From the NCBI GenBank assembly GCA_003138365.1, contig PLFY01000167.1, positions 46,952-97,001 on the forward strand: 50,050 nt of DNA, given 5' to 3'. A model generated the notes under the pieces. That model was not told where the DNA came from, ran no database searches, and saw only the letters and a list, made by a program, of their open reading frames with translations. The DNA comes from Acidobacteriaceae bacterium. Lineage in GTDB: Bacteria > Acidobacteriota > Terriglobia > Terriglobales > Acidobacteriaceae. The stretch's first letter is position 1; the number at the start of each line of letters is the position of its first letter. Position numbers and translations under genes: made by a program. Shown piece after piece: positions 5,451 through 11,186 of this stretch.

Positions 5451-7418
5451 ATGCTCTCCCTGCAAAATGCCGGCAAGCGGTTCGGACCCCGCGTTCTGTT
5501 TCTTGAGGCCAATTGGCTGATTCGGGCGCGGGAGAAGACAGCGCTTGTGGGGGCCAACGGCACCGGCAAGTCCACGCTGATGAAGGTGCTGGCGGGGCTT
5601 GAGACGCTGGACTACGGCGGCTTGCAGCAGACCCGCGGCATGAGCATCGGCTACCTGCCCCAAGAAGGGCTTGCGCTGGCCGGACGCAGCGTCTTTGAAG
5701 AGTGCCTCACGGTCTTCGATGAACTGCGCGACATGGAAAAGGAGATCGAGCACCTGGCGGGACAACTGGCCGCCCTCGATCACGCGAGTCCCGAATATGA
5801 GTCCGCGGCGGAGCGCTTCTCCATGTTGCAGGAGCGCTTTCACGCGCTTGACGGTTACGCGCTGGACGCGCAGGTGGGCGGCGTGCTCACCGGGCTCGGC
5901 TTCGGCAAGGAGGATTGGGCGCGCCAGACCGATGAGTTCAGCGGCGGCTGGCAGATGCGGATCGCCCTGGCCAAGCTGCTGCTCGCCAAACCGAATCTGC
6001 TGCTGCTCGACGAGCCTACCAATCACCTGGACCTTGAAACCCGCAACTGGCTCGAAGACTATCTCAGGACTTATCCCTTCGGCTACATCCTCATCTCCCA
6101 CGACCGCTACTTTCTCGATGTAACGATCGATCGCACCGTGGAGATATGGAACAAACGGCTCAATATCTATCAGGGCAATTACACCAAATATCTGAGCCAG
6201 AAAGACGAACGGCGGACGCAGTTGGAGGCGGCTTACCGCAACCAGCGCATCCAGATCGAACATCTTGAAGCGTTCATCAACCGTTTTCGCGCCCAGGCCA
6301 CCAAGGCCAAGCAGGTGCAATCGCGCATCAAGGAACTGGAAAAGATCGAGCGCATCGAGATCCCCGAAGAGGAGCCAGTTATACACTTCAAGTTTCCCCA
6401 GCCGCCGCCCTCGGGACGGACGGTGGTGGAGGCTGAGGGGCTATCGAAGAGTTATGGCGCCAAGCAGGTGTTCAGCGGCGTCAAGTTCAATCTTTCGCGC
6501 GGCGACCGCGTGGCGCTGGTAGGCGTGAACGGCGCGGGAAAATCCACGCTCATCAAACTCCTTACCGGCGATGAAACGCCCACGGCGGGCTCGGTCCGCC
6601 TGGGCCACAACGTTCTCAGCGAATACTTTGCGCAGGACCAGTACAAGGTGCTCAACGGCGACGCGCGGATGCTGGACGACATCAGCCGCGCCGCGCTGAA
6701 GGTTCCGGAACAGGCGCTGCGGTCTCTGCTGGGATGCTTTCTGTTCAGCGGCGACGATGTCTTCAAGCCGCTCGGCGTGCTCTCCGGCGGGGAGCGGAAC
6801 CGCTACGCGCTGGCGCGCATTCTCGTCTCGCCGTCGAATTTCTTGTTGCTCGACGAACCCACCAACCATCTGGATATGCGCGCCAAGGACGTGCTGCTGG
6901 AGGCGCTGGCGGCTTTCAGTGGCACGGTGGTCTTTGTTTCGCACGACCGCTACTTCATTGACCGGCTGGCTACGCGGGTGCTGGAGGTGGAAGGCGGCAA
7001 CGTGACCAGCCATGAAGGCAACTACGAGGACTATCTGCGCTGGAAGGAGGCGCAGAGGGTTGCATCCAGCAGCCTTTCGGTTGAGGTGTCGCCAAAGGGA
7101 AGACAGCCGGAGACCGTTGCGCCTTCGAACGGCAATGGGAGCAACGGCGCCACGGATGCCGATGCCGAAACTGTGAAGGACCGCACGCGGCGGCTGAATC
7201 CTATCAAGCAGAAGCAGATGGAGGAGCGGTGCGCGTTTCTGGAAGAAGAGGTTCCGCGCATCGAGGGTGCGATTGCGCACACCGAGGAGCAGTTGGGCGT
7301 TTATGTCTCTGCTGCCGAGACGCATCGGTTGACGACCTTGGCCGAGGAGCTGCGCGCGGAGTTGGCCACGTTTACCGCCGAATGGGAAGAGCTGACGATG
7401 CAATTGGAAAACGCTTGA
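5451..7418 (+). CDS. ABC-F family ATPase
   Basis: The product is 655 aa with two ABC nucleotide-binding domains and no membrane segment, the ABC-F architecture. Domain 1 has Walker A GANGTGKST near residue 34, signature FSGGWQ near 163 and Walker B LLLLDEPTNHLD. Domain 2 has GVNGAGKST near 358, LSGGERNR near 444 and LLLDEPTNHLD. A charged linker of about 80 residues joins them, and the C-terminus (about 580-655) is a predicted coiled coil as in Uup-type proteins. ABC-F proteins bind the ribosomal E site or other nucleic-acid structures and act in translation or resistance; which subgroup this is cannot be decided by eye. The ATG at 5451 is preceded by GAGAATAGAGAG. The gene stands alone. Confidence 0.9.
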   Translation: MLSLQNAGKRFGPRVLFLEANWLIRAREKTALVGANGTGKSTLMKVLAGLETLDYGGLQQTRGMSIGYLPQEGLALAGRSVFEECLTVFDELRDMEKEIEHLAGQLAALDHASPEYESAAERFSMLQERFHALDGYALDAQVGGVLTGLGFGKEDWARQTDEFSGGWQMRIALAKLLLAKPNLLLLDEPTNHLDLETRNWLEDYLRTYPFGYILISHDRYFLDVTIDRTVEIWNKRLNIYQGNYTKYLSQKDERRTQLEAAYRNQRIQIEHLEAFINRFRAQATKAKQVQSRIKELEKIERIEIPEEEPVIHFKFPQPPPSGRTVVEAEGLSKSYGAKQVFSGVKFNLSRGDRVALVGVNGAGKSTLIKLLTGDETPTAGSVRLGHNVLSEYFAQDQYKVLNGDARMLDDISRAALKVPEQALRSLLGCFLFSGDDVFKPLGVLSGGERNRYALARILVSPSNFLLLDEPTNHLDMRAKDVLLEALAAFSGTVVFVSHDRYFIDRLATRVLEVEGGNVTSHEGNYEDYLRWKEAQRVASSSLSVEVSPKGRQPETVAPSNGNGSNGATDADAETVKDRTRRLNPIKQKQMEERCAFLEEEVPRIEGAIAHTEEQLGVYVSAAETHRLTTLAEELRAELATFTAEWEELTMQLENA

Positions 7419-7591: not shown

Positions 7592-7969
7592 TCAGGCGGA
7601 TTTTCGCGATTTCGGCTCGTAACGGAGGGTGGCGAGCGCAACCTGCGCCGCGTACAGGAGCTGGTTGGCCCTCTTTTCGGGAATCGCGTCGATGAGAATG
7701 CCGTGGGCTGCGCAGGCGACGAAGTCGCGGATGCTTTCATAACCGGCAAGAGGAGGCATGGCTTTGCAGAAGGCAGGGCCGGCCTCGTGGGCGGCCGTGA
7801 TCGCGTCCGCGCCGCTGCCGCGGGTACCCTCCATGTAAGCATCGTAGACGCGCTGCCAGGCGGCGCAGCAACGCTTGATGGCGGCCCGGGCTTGTTTGGG
7901 GTTGGAGTCGAGCGCCGGCAGAGGAATGGCCTCGACCAAGCTGAGTTCCGATGCGGTTTTTGGGGTCAT
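7592..7969 (-). CDS. Small conserved hypothetical protein
   Basis: The product is 125 aa, soluble, mostly helical, with no signal peptide. From memory it resembles a small protein family seen often in acidobacterial genomes, with the central pattern AGPAFCKAMPPL followed by IRDFVACAAHGILIDAI and LLYAAQVAL. Its function is unknown to me and I assign none. The ATG at 7969 has GGGAG 8 nt upstream. The two conserved Cys-containing stretches (KRCCAAW, VACAAHG) could be structural. It is convergent with the ABC-F gene and divergent from the three-gene cluster to its right; a G-run lies just past its stop at 7577-7590. Confidence 0.7.
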   Translation of the reverse strand: MTPKTASELSLVEAIPLPALDSNPKQARAAIKRCCAAWQRVYDAYMEGTRGSGADAITAAHEAGPAFCKAMPPLAGYESIRDFVACAAHGILIDAIPEKRANQLLYAAQVALATLRYEPKSRKSA

Positions 7970-8351: not shown

Positions 8352-9182
8352 ATGGAGCCCAAGGTGACCGCACGGCCGCTTGACTTACCAGACTTTAGCA
8401 ACCCGCCAGTGGTGGAAACGCTTATGTCTGCGCAGTTTGATCGACTATCGGGACTGCAAACCGCACATTTCGGTCTGTACTGGAGCGAAGTGCATGAGCG
8501 ATATCCAAAGACTGAAGAGCATGGGGAACTTCCGTCTCAGATAGAGCGGTTTCCCGAACAGGCTCAACCCGGAGTGGGCATTCAGTTTCAAGCGCTTGAG
8601 GCTCCTCCGACGCCGAGGTTTTGGTTTGTCGATGAAGGGGGCACTGAGCTAATCCAGGTCCAGAGAGACCGCTTTATCAAGAACTGGCGCAAGATAGGGG
8701 AGGGTGCTCTTTACCCACGCTATGAGCACGTGCGAGGTGGCTTCGATCAAGATTTCCTGAACTTCGATCAATTCGTGTCTCGCAACCAACTAGGAACCAT
8801 TCGCGTCAACCAGTGTGAAGTGACTTACATCAATCACATTGTGGCGGGTGCGGGTTGGGAGACCCACACTGACATTGACAAGGTTTTCACTGTGTGGCAG
8901 CAGCCTGTGTCCACCTATCCCGGACAAGCTCAGGACCTAACGTTTCGCGCCAGATTCCCGATATCTGATCAGAGCGGAGGATTTGTGGGACGCCTTCAAG
9001 TTACCCTTCAACCGGTAAGACGTCTCTCCGATGGCGTCCCCATGTTCTTATTGGACCTGACGGCGCGGGGACAGATCGGTGAGGGCACGGACTTCTTTGA
9101 TCTCGGTCGCGAATGGATCGTCCGCTCATTCGCGGAGTTGACCACACCTGCAATGCACAAGATTTGGGGTAGGAGGAACTAG
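8352..9182 (+). CDS. TIGR04255-like family protein
   Basis: The product is 276 aa, soluble. The N-terminal pattern LPDFSNPPVVETLMSAQF and the C-terminal region (FDLGREWIVRSFAEL followed by HKIWGRRN) match what I recall of the TIGR04255 family, which is sporadic across bacteria and of unknown function. It heads a tight cluster: the next gene begins 2 nt after its stop, with GGAGG inside its own last codons, so the two are translationally coupled. The ATG at 8352 has no clear ribosome-binding site, but an overlapping 24-codon frame with a strong site could couple to it. The stretch reads as less G+C-rich than the ppc gene to the right, which fits an acquired segment. Confidence 0.75.
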   Translation: MEPKVTARPLDLPDFSNPPVVETLMSAQFDRLSGLQTAHFGLYWSEVHERYPKTEEHGELPSQIERFPEQAQPGVGIQFQALEAPPTPRFWFVDEGGTELIQVQRDRFIKNWRKIGEGALYPRYEHVRGGFDQDFLNFDQFVSRNQLGTIRVNQCEVTYINHIVAGAGWETHTDIDKVFTVWQQPVSTYPGQAQDLTFRARFPISDQSGGFVGRLQVTLQPVRRLSDGVPMFLLDLTARGQIGEGTDFFDLGREWIVRSFAELTTPAMHKIWGRRN

Positions 9183-9184
9183 GC

Positions 9185-9709
9185 ATGGCAGCGCTTGCTC
9201 TACCAGCATTTCGACCGGCTACAGCATTGACCGATAATCAGTTTGAATCGCGGTCGGAGTTCCCAGCGGCAAGTCTAGCGGCCCTTACGAAGCCAAAGGA
9301 AAGGGCATTCGTGGTTTCATCTAGGGGGAACACCTACAGGATCGTTGTAACAACGGAACCAATCCCAGCGTGGGTTGAGCCGACTATTTCCGCCTTTATT
9401 GCGGTCCAAACGCTTCCTGATAACTGGGATTCCTACAGGGGCAAGAAGATCAATCGCGACCTCATGAATCAGTCGCTGTCCGTTCTGGGATCAATTATGG
9501 GAGCGACCTCTCCTGCCCCTTCGGTGGTTCCGCTCGGAGACGGAGGCCTTCAGCTAGAATGGCACAGGAACCAGCAGGACTTAGAAGTAGTGTTTGCGGC
9601 CGAGGACGCTCCACGGTTCTTTTACCAAAACAGGGCGACCGGGGTAGGGCAGGAAGGTTTCGCTAGCGACTTTATGAACTTGGTTCAGCTATTGCGCGGT
9701 ATCGCTTAA
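9185..9709 (+). CDS. Hypothetical protein partnered with the TIGR04255-like gene
   Basis: The product is 174 aa, without signal peptide or membrane segment. Conserved-looking features are LPDNWDSYRGKKI near residue 79 and VVPLGDGGLQLEWHRNQQDL near 115. I recall these as hallmarks of an uncharacterised small protein family found in scattered, often mobile contexts. I know no function. Start ATG 9185 has GGAGG at 9173-9177 within the end of the preceding gene, and the next reading frame begins 3 nt after its stop, so the three form one transcription unit. Confidence 0.7.
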   Translation: MAALALPAFRPATALTDNQFESRSEFPAASLAALTKPKERAFVVSSRGNTYRIVVTTEPIPAWVEPTISAFIAVQTLPDNWDSYRGKKINRDLMNQSLSVLGSIMGATSPAPSVVPLGDGGLQLEWHRNQQDLEVVFAAEDAPRFFYQNRATGVGQEGFASDFMNLVQLLRGIA

Positions 9710-9712
9710 CGA

Positions 9713-10147
9713 ATGTCGCCGCCAGTCTATCAAGATAACGAGTCAATCAGCGACGAAGAGAGATGATTTCGTCGCGTACATATCACGCAGTTTTTGCGAG
9801 ACGACGATACGGGCTTGGCACGTGTCTCATCAGGTGTGTTCAAGGACAAAGATCTGTCGGTAAATATTGAATCGACCTTAACAAATACCGGGGGGTCTGC
9901 CGAGACGTGCCTACATAATTACAAAGCCCACAAGCTCATATCCATTACCGCGGAAAATGCCAGACAACTCAACCAGGCAGTCTGTCGTGATCCCCTCCCC
10001 GGCGACCTGTCGCATGGACTCGTATACGGTTCAAAAAACGCGCGAAATGTTCACGATGGCCTCCGTGCAATGGCAGCTTGGGTAATACCTGCGAGTGCTC
10101 CTCGGCATGAGGATATTTTGGCGGAGAAACGAATCTTAGGTATTTAG
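9713..10147 (+). pseudogene. Third cluster gene, interrupted by an in-frame TGA
   Basis: From the ATG at 9713 the frame reads MSPPVYQDNESISDEER, then a TGA stop at 9764-9766. It continues in the same frame as FRRVHITQFLRDDD and onward for 117 further residues to a stop at 10145. The downstream part has patterns I recall from an uncharacterised family: an RR-x-H near the start, VFKDKDLSVN, an AR-x-x-NQAV stretch, PLPGDLSHGLVYG and a C-terminal AAWVIPA. In that family the conserved region includes the RR-x-H part, which here lies just after the stop. The gene is therefore either broken by one base change (for example TGG to TGA), read through, or restarted at the weak TTG 9794, which has no ribosome-binding site. 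Function unknown. Confidence 0.6.
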
Positions 10148-10190
10148 GAATAGTGATCGGCCTCCTTTTGAGACCATCCTTAGAGCCCAT

Positions 10191-10306
10191 CGTGGATAAT
10201 CGAAATACGATGTCTCTTTTGTGGAATCCCGAGAGTTGGTCGCAGCGGCTGGCGGAGTTGGAGGCGCAATCCGGCGACCTGAAGGAAGCGCCGCTGCGGC
10301 GCGATG
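10191..10306 (+). repeat. 116-bp direct repeat, copy 1 (duplicate of ppc 5' end)
   Basis: This segment matches 11071-11186 at 113 of 116 positions, offset exactly 880 bp. It contains 19 bp upstream of the ppc start and the first 97 bases of the ppc reading frame. Differences are at 10195, 10284 and 10293. Flanking bases differ abruptly on both sides. The two copies bracket the MntA/HepT-type pair. Confidence 0.95.
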
Positions 10307-11022: not shown

Positions 11023-11070
11023 GATTGCCTCTCACTCGGGCGCACGGTGAGACTATGATGCTCCTCCTCT

Positions 11071-11186
11071 CGTGCATAATCGAAATACGATGTCTCTTTT
11101 GTGGAATCCCGAGAGTTGGTCGCAGCGGCTGGCGGAGTTGGAGGCGCAATCCGGCGACCTGAAAGAAGCGCCCCTGCGGCGCGATG
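11071..11186 (+). repeat. 116-bp direct repeat, copy 2 (functional ppc 5' end)
   Basis: This copy matches 10191-10306 with three mismatches. It includes a CATAAT at 11075-11080, 9 nt ahead of the ppc ATG; copy 1 has GATAAT there. Either would fit a -10 box giving a nearly leaderless transcript, but no -35 box is clear. This copy continues into the intact gene. Confidence 0.95.

What the first reader, a model, noticed from the sequence alone, without database searches (positions are those of the whole stretch)
8352..10147. Compact three-gene cluster of unknown function (TIGR04255-like, LPDNWDSY protein, FKDKDLSVN protein)
The three frames are spaced 2 and 3 nt apart and none has a known function. 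I recall all three families as sporadically distributed. The cluster sits beside a toxin-antitoxin module in an accessory stretch that reads less G+C-rich than the flanking housekeeping genes. A conserved trio of this type could be an undescribed defence, stress or mobile-element-associated system.
Basis: partly seen in the sequence, partly recalled or inferred. Interest (0 to 1): 0.62.

Follow-up and report, generated by a model that had tools for sequence, protein, structure and literature searches.

The report
Three-part toxin-antitoxin operon, toxin gene interrupted
Three small unexplained genes look like a member of a widespread class of three-part bacterial toxin-antitoxin systems, in which one shared protein teams up with interchangeable toxin and antitoxin pairs, and in this genome the toxin gene carries a stop codon and is probably dead.

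Summary
The trio is real and conserved, but its third frame is not open: a TGA at 9764-9766 interrupts it. Gene 1 is a TIGR04255 protein (57.5 bits, cut-off 30). In 80 TIGR04255 loci from many phyla it is nearly always gene A of an A-B-C operon with variable B and C. B and C are matched: a model of gene 2's family hits B in 33 of 33 loci whose C is of gene 3's family, and in 0 of 32 and 0 of 10 loci of two other classes. Elsewhere C is PIN, PemK/MazF-like or HNH, and weakly HEPN or HicA. A gene 3 relative is predicted (pLDDT 94.8) with the ADP-ribosyltransferase fold (KptA Z 8.4). The B-C pair also occurs with other first components. I read this as a tripartite toxin-antitoxin module working like TAC/CmdTAC: gene 3 toxin, gene 2 antitoxin, gene 1 exchangeable third component (its sensor or chaperone-like role is inferred). 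The window copy is a probable remnant in a variable spot between ABC-F and ppc. Nothing was tested at the bench.

The parts
8352..9182 (+). Gene A: TIGR04255 protein, 276 aa, the shared third component of the tripartite module
   Evidence: NCBIfam TIGR04255 57.5 bits against cut-off 30; its subgroup aligns with canonical A proteins by profile (97.0%, E 1e-10); A-B-C operons in 80 loci
9185..9709 (+). Gene B: 'LPDNWDSY' protein, 174 aa, proposed cognate antitoxin
   Evidence: Its subgroup aligns with canonical B proteins (98.2%, E 3.9e-14); PADLOC PDC-M32A C-terminal part, E 3.6e-10; B class follows C class
9713..10147 (+). Gene C, interrupted: ADP-ribosyltransferase-fold family, proposed toxin, probable pseudogene here
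   Evidence: In-frame TGA; homologue behind B in G258 (E 1.5e-9); subgroup against canonical family 96.3%, E 1.7e-9; fold of the family
9764..9766 (+). In-frame TGA stop in gene C, just before the codons of the conserved Arg
   Evidence: Translation of 9713-10147; alignment of the family
9794..10147 (+). Longest open part of gene C (TTG start, 117 aa): keeps the Ser and His of the proposed triad, lacks the strand with the Arg
   Evidence: ORF list; alignments

Best explanation
The trio is a tripartite toxin-antitoxin module. Gene C encodes a small protein with the ADP-ribosyltransferase (ART) fold that, when intact, would transfer ADP-ribose from NAD+ to a cell target and stop growth. Gene B encodes its dedicated antitoxin. 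Gene A (TIGR04255) is an exchangeable third component that acts on B, as a sensor or chaperone-like partner, so that loss of A, or its capture by a trigger such as a phage protein, would free the toxin. Shown by computation: the operon order and its recurrence, the matching of B with C, partner swapping of A, the presence of the B-C pair with other first components, and a confident model of a relative of C whose best structural neighbours are ARTs. Inferred: toxicity, neutralisation by B, the role of A, and defence. In this genome gene C is interrupted by a stop codon, so the copy is probably an inactive remnant in a variable spot between an ABC-F gene and ppc.
For: A-B-C operons: in 80 loci a mechanical picker found a closed B in 79 and a closed C in 76, many with 4-nt overlaps; three picks (L107, L113, L115) were wrong and read by eye. 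By C: ART family 33, 'YNCIAWA' (DUF7689 type) 32 of which L151 by its B alone, 'QGD..CDL' type 10, HEPN-like 1, unsure 3, contig end 1. B models, seeds included: 33 of 33 and 32 of 32 in their own class, 0 in the other classes, apart from the 3 unsure loci, whose B is of the gene 2 type. C genes of other modules: PIN 1.7e-11, PemK 5.8e-19, HNH 1.8e-6 and DUF7689 1.2e-38 pass Pfam cut-offs; HEPN, HicA and a second PemK are below them. ART fold: L111 C, pLDDT 94.8; VIA-align Z 8.4 (2.4 A over 89) to KptA, 7.9 to Tpt1, 6.4 to AvrPphF ORF2, then entries with Rhs toxins (4.8, 4.1), RES (4.2), LT and NarE, unrelated rows from 2.5 down. Arg15, Ser45 and His102 are invariant in 21 of 21 canonical sequences. 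The window subgroups are tied to the canonical families for all three genes. The ART label needs 12 changes on the A tree, at least 4 forced by starred branches. A-B fusion followed by C in L107. The B-C pair with a different first domain in L177/L208 and with another first protein in L180/L209; in L208 and L071 the modules sit in matching slots. Many B proteins share an N-terminal motif across two unrelated B classes (16 of 37 at p < 0.05).
Against: No toxicity, binding or defence was measured. Foldseek alone gave no significant match for C (best E 0.25), and the tool's note puts typical chance-level best Z at 7 to 8, so the case rests on the consistency of the top 23 VIA rows; which chain of the toxin complexes was matched was not checked. 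The fold was predicted for a relative, not for the window protein, and iterated HMMER did not reach the window C; the link is profile-profile and through L039. His stands where classical ARTs have Glu, so activity may differ or be absent. The A model has no clear relative and SecB is not in the lists. The motif test: 0 of 8 QGD-class B, 1 of 17 further B proteins (L059), and not the window B (p 0.82). Some TIGR04255 genes show no B or C (L054), and G108 has B without TIGR04255 beside it. The class frequencies are biased because the scan was seeded with A proteins of ART and HEPN modules.
Confidence: 0.66

Rival explanations
1. A two-component toxin-antitoxin pair (B and C) with TIGR04255 as an independent regulator, for example a DNA-binding repressor of the operon, since the A model has some likeness to TBP.
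For: TBP chains appear in the Foldseek list (from E 8e-4, TM-scores 0.24-0.29 by query) and the VIA list (Z about 7) for the A model; the B-C pair exists with other first components.
Against: Guanidino kinase domains score higher (Z 9.0), so no single fold stands out; an A-B fusion (L107) and the overlapping genes favour direct A-B contact.
Confidence: 0.18
2. C has the ART fold but is an RNA-repair type enzyme (Tpt1/KptA-like 2'-phosphotransferase), and the operon is a stress or repair unit, not a toxin-antitoxin module.
For: The closest folds are KptA/Tpt1.
Against: Patchy distribution; exchange of C with PIN, PemK, HNH and HEPN-like genes behind the same A family; C is only about 130 aa and aligns to residues about 85-180 of KptA.
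Confidence: 0.08
3. The trio is the PADLOC candidate system PDC-M32 as such, a two-gene anti-phage system to which TIGR04255 has been added.
For: Window B matches the C-terminal part of PDC-M32A (3.6e-10); L039 C matches PDC-M32B (0.0013).
Against: The N-terminal 250 residues of PDC-M32A are absent here and did not match a TIGR04255 profile; that domain also stands before genes that I read as PIN-like in L178 and L179.
Confidence: 0.08

Closest known systems
CmdTAC (Vassallo et al. 2024, PMC11618068; abstract and found passages seen)
   Same: Three genes: ART toxin, antitoxin, third component; there the third component stabilises the antitoxin and senses phage capsid protein.
   Different: CmdC is SecB-like; here the third component is TIGR04255 and no SecB match was seen. 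The proposed triad here is Arg-Ser-His; [quoted passage not shown] No defence test here.
SecB-type TAC systems with chaperone addiction (Bordes et al. 2016, PMC5105189; passages seen)
   Same: One third-component family serves unrelated toxin-antitoxin families (HigBA, HicAB, MqsRA).
   Different: There the antitoxin docks by a C-terminal extension to a SecB homologue; here a shared N-terminal motif is seen in part of the B proteins and A is TIGR04255.
PADLOC PDC-M32 (candidate; PADLOC models; passages of PMC12429752)
   Same: Same B domain and same C family.
   Different: A different first domain, fused to B.
Hyperpromiscuous antitoxin networks (Panacea, NetFlax; PMC10440598, passages seen)
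   Same: One component combines with many unrelated toxins.
   Different: There the shared part is the antitoxin itself; here it is a third gene and each toxin class keeps its own B.

Membership tests
TIGR04255 (NCBIfam) | Score above the curated cut-off of 30 bits | tested here: met
   57.5 bits over 2-252 of 252
[quoted passage not shown]
   Order and spacing in the window and in 80 loci; the toxin frame is broken in the window and the roles are inferred
[quoted passage not shown]
   Profile search of solved structures gave only one chance-like hit; SecB is not in the listed Foldseek or VIA rows for the A model, which does not exclude it
[quoted passage not shown]
   Shared N-terminal motif in 16 of 37 B proteins at p < 0.05, 0 of 8 QGD-class, 1 of 17 others, not in the window B
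[quoted passage not shown]
   Needs expression tests
ADP-ribosyltransferase fold superfamily (gene C) | ART fold | tested here: met
   For the relative L111 C: pLDDT 94.8, best VIA rows KptA, Tpt1, AvrPphF, then entries with Rhs toxins and RES; Foldseek not significant; window tied by profile only
Classical ART toxins with an Arg-Ser-Glu or His-Tyr-Glu triad (recalled) | Catalytic Glu | tested here: not met
   Invariant Arg, Ser and His instead in 21 of 21; Ser and His in 34 of 34
PADLOC PDC-M32 | M32A with its N-terminal domain (1-251) fused to the B domain | tested here: not met
   Window B matches only 265-335 of 375; the N-domain does not match a TIGR04255 profile
PADLOC PDC-M32 | M32B protein | tested here: inconclusive
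   Window fragment: no M32B match at E up to 1; L039 orthologue 0.0013 over 2-106 of 123

The most novel reading that the evidence does not exclude
TIGR04255 is the common third component of a large, undescribed combinatorial class of tripartite toxin-antitoxin systems: a non-SecB protein that docks on many unrelated antitoxins, partly through a shared N-terminal motif, and thereby controls ART, PIN, MazF, HicA, HEPN, DUF7689 and other effectors, probably as a phage or stress sensor; its ART toxins use an unusual Arg-Ser-His triad.
Probability: 0.42. Interest if true: 0.82.

Novelty: new variant of a known kind. Interest (0 to 1): 0.66.

Why it matters
It gives a testable role to a protein family known only as sporadic, predicts toxin and antitoxin partners that can be read off from the next two genes, and offers a second kind of third component beside SecB. 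How one component can serve many unrelated toxin-antitoxin pairs, and what triggers such systems, become directly testable with the intact relatives listed here.

Tried and rejected
Rejected: that the third frame is one open gene. Rejected: that PDC-M32A is a TIGR04255-B fusion; its N-domain did not match a TIGR04255 profile, although a real A-B fusion exists in L107. Not kept: a SecB relation of TIGR04255 (no SecB row in the PDB lists, which does not exclude it) and a viral counterpart (BFVD best E 4.6e-7, TM 0.45, unnamed protein). Led nowhere: viral contig scans with genes A and C, plasmid search with the C of L039, sequence searches of solved structures (one weak hit each), promoter and terminator scan (2 promoter-like sites against a shuffled mean of 1.7, 7 terminator-like sites against 3.7).

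Defence neighbourhood: 121 proteins flanking 28 TIGR04255 loci matched 182 PADLOC families at E up to 1e-10 (among the 25 shown: mad2 in 4 proteins, type I methylase in 3, type I REase, specificity subunit, DUF499 and HmaC in 2), 117 proteins of 20 control stretches of the same genomes matched 66 (all 25 shown in 1 protein each, among them PD-T4-6, AbiEi, AbiEii, mad6). The tool counts families and shows 25, so I take this as weak support only. 121 of 125 flank proteins were drawn at random; of 121 control proteins 4 long ones were dropped to stay under the size limit.

Rows dropped or treated apart: L117 from the large A alignments (stops in frame); L107, L115 and L139 from the motif test. 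L167, L169 and L172 have a gene 2 type B, but the iterated profile did not recover their C, so they count as unsure; on the A tree they and L044 and L061 were nevertheless labelled ART.

Full report
What is in the sequence. Frames 8352-9182 and 9185-9709 are open and lie 2 nt apart; the next frame starts at 9713, 3 nt on. That third frame is not open: after 17 codons it meets a TGA at 9764-9766 and is then open to 10147. The codons of the conserved Arg of the family come just after the stop (alignment), and the listed start of the remaining part (TTG 9794) lies behind them, so a product from there would lack the first strand. The assembly is a draft of 230 contigs, so a sequencing error cannot be excluded.

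Surroundings. Upstream is an ABC-F ATPase gene (5451-7418), downstream an MNT/HEPN pair and then ppc. A 117-bp direct repeat, 97% alike, flanks the MNT/HEPN pair at 10190-10306 and 11070-11186; the second copy is the start of ppc. Of 21 genus genomes searched, 17 had a match to ppc; I fetched 13 of these loci. ABC-F and ppc are neighbours in 10 of the 13; the gap is about 40 bp in 3 of them (L224, L225, L229) and 0.65 to 3.6 kb in 7. In none of the 13 was a match to gene A, B, C, MNT or HEPN found (tblastn, E up to 1e-5). The trio thus sits in a variable spot between two conserved genes. The other cargo there is mixed and not plainly defence.

Conservation of the trio. In a sample of 297 genomes of the phylum, TIGR04255 occurs in 29, gene B in 6, gene C in 2 by single sequence and in 5 at E below 1e-12 by profile, with 12 further genomes at E 0.009 to 0.1 that I regard as chance. 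Of the 6 B hits, 5 lie beside a TIGR04255 gene (own, G073, G257, G258 where A is cut by the contig start, and G184 with a frame-broken A); G108 has B beside a gene that I read as AbiEi-like and no TIGR04255 match. Of the 5 C hits, 4 follow B; the fifth (G131) starts near a contig end. A Mycobacterium paragordonae plasmid has TIGR04255 and two following genes that weakly match PDC-M32A and PDC-M32B, beside a MobF relaxase. In G258 the next genes downstream include one that matches a PADLOC Argonaute-associated nuclease family (7.6e-18) and one whose start I read as TIR-like (not tested).

The wider class. A scan of one genome per species with an alignment of five TIGR04255 proteins confirmed 266 loci and kept 80; their titles name more than 20 phylum-level groups, counted by eye, and some titles of metagenome bins may be wrong. 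The scan was seeded with A proteins of ART and HEPN modules, so class frequencies are biased. A mechanical picker found a closed B in 79 and a closed C in 76 of the 80, many with the 4-nt overlap; three picks were wrong and read by eye (L107, L113, L115). By C: ART family 33 (32 by profile, L113 by eye), 'YNCIAWA' family 32 (L151, at a contig end, by its B alone), 'QGD..CDL' family 10 (L130 a variant), HEPN-like 1, unsure 3, contig end 1. The name DUF7689 for the second class comes from one member scanned (L063, 1.2e-38). In the phylum sample further C genes are PIN (L058), PemK (L070) and HNH (L047) at Pfam cut-off, and below it PemK (L066), HicA (L067), HEPN (L062, L125) and YafO (L077). These are usual effectors of toxin-antitoxin and defence systems.

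B and C belong together, A is shared. A profile of 12 B proteins of the ART class hits 33 of 33 B proteins of that class (seeds included), 0 of 32 of the second class and 0 of 10 of the QGD class; a profile of 12 B proteins of the second class hits 32 of 32 and none of the rest. On the A tree (98 rows, 42 labelled ART including five unsure ones) the ART label needs 12 changes, of which starred branches force at least 4; labels are nevertheless clustered (shuffled mean 32). The window's A groups with L040, L041 and L044-L046 (starred), apart from the main ART clade. In L107 A and B are one protein followed by C.

The B-C pair with other partners. A full-length PDC-M32A (L177, E 1.3e-120) consists of a different N-terminal domain fused to a B domain, followed by C; that N-domain without the B domain stands before genes that I read as PIN-like in L178 and L179, and L180 has yet another first protein before B and C. 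A TIGR04255 profile did not match the N-domain. In L208 (G115) this M32 pair lies between a large DNA methylase and another large gene; in L071 (G286) TIGR04255, B and C lie between what look like the same two genes. The names methylase, helicase and PIN-like here, and the likeness of the two flanks, are read by eye, not from a family search.

Structure. The C of L111, with 34 aligned relatives, is predicted at pLDDT 94.8. Foldseek's best match is KptA with E 0.25, not significant. VIA-align on Foldseek's candidates puts KptA/Tpt1 (Z 8.4 down to 4.6), AvrPphF ORF2 (6.4), entries with two Rhs toxins (4.8, 4.1), RES (4.2), LT, NarE and a cholera holotoxin variant in the top 23 rows, then unrelated rows from 2.5; which chain of the complexes was matched was not checked. 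Arg15, Ser45 and His102 are invariant in 21 of 21 canonical sequences and lie at the first strand, the LSV strand and a late strand, where I recall Arg, Ser and Glu in classical ARTs. The window C keeps the Ser and the His. The window's subgroups align with the canonical families by profile: C 96.3%, E 1.7e-9; B 98.2%, 3.9e-14; A 97.0%, 1e-10. Iterated HMMER reached L041, L083 and L040 at E below 1e-3 but not the window C. The A model, of L060 with 76 aligned rows (pLDDT 95.7), is rich in strands with an apparent repeat; its best rows are guanidino kinase domains (Z 9.0) and TBP (about 7), no clear relative. Gene B was not modelled.

A possible docking motif. A 13-column matrix made only from 20 B proteins of the second class finds matches at p < 0.05 in 16 of 37 B proteins of the remaining non-QGD set, and the best match starts at residues 18-28 in 24 of 37; the median score is 2.7 against -1.4 in C-terminal controls. 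Against it: 0 of 8 QGD-class B proteins, 1 of 17 further B proteins, and not the window B (p 0.82). Related sequences are not independent. I treat this as suggestive.

Mechanism. A shared third gene with matched, swappable toxin-antitoxin pairs is the pattern of TAC systems, in which a SecB-like chaperone protects the antitoxin (PMC5105189, passages) and in CmdTAC senses phage capsid protein and so frees an ART toxin (PMC11618068, abstract and passages). I propose the same logic with TIGR04255 in place of SecB. The searches of the paper library found no paper with the word TIGR04255 or DUF7689 and one with PDC-M32; that library lacks most subscription journals, so I do not claim that nothing is in print.

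Noticed in passing
window 10190-10306 and 11070-11186: A 117-bp direct repeat (97%) holding the start of ppc flanks the MNT/HEPN toxin-antitoxin pair, as if that pair had inserted at ppc and rebuilt the gene start.
   Followed up: partly
L049:5980-7285 (Acetobacter persici plasmid): A protein with two copies of the B domain is followed by an SspB-family protein (PF04386 2.5e-11), the ClpXP adaptor family.
   Followed up: no
L051:2965-5348 and L052:2931-5342 (Hymenobacter plasmids): B-domain proteins follow DUF4209 proteins (in L051 PADLOC PDC-S39, 4.2e-18, near a BrxE gene): another partner of the B domain.
   Followed up: no
L178:920-2262 and L179:1489-2834: The PDC-M32A N-terminal domain stands directly before a gene that I read as PIN-like, so it may be a second shared component of such modules.
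   Followed up: partly
window 7592-7969 (-): A 125-aa reading frame upstream of the trio has no family match above a cut-off; it may or may not be a gene.
   Followed up: no
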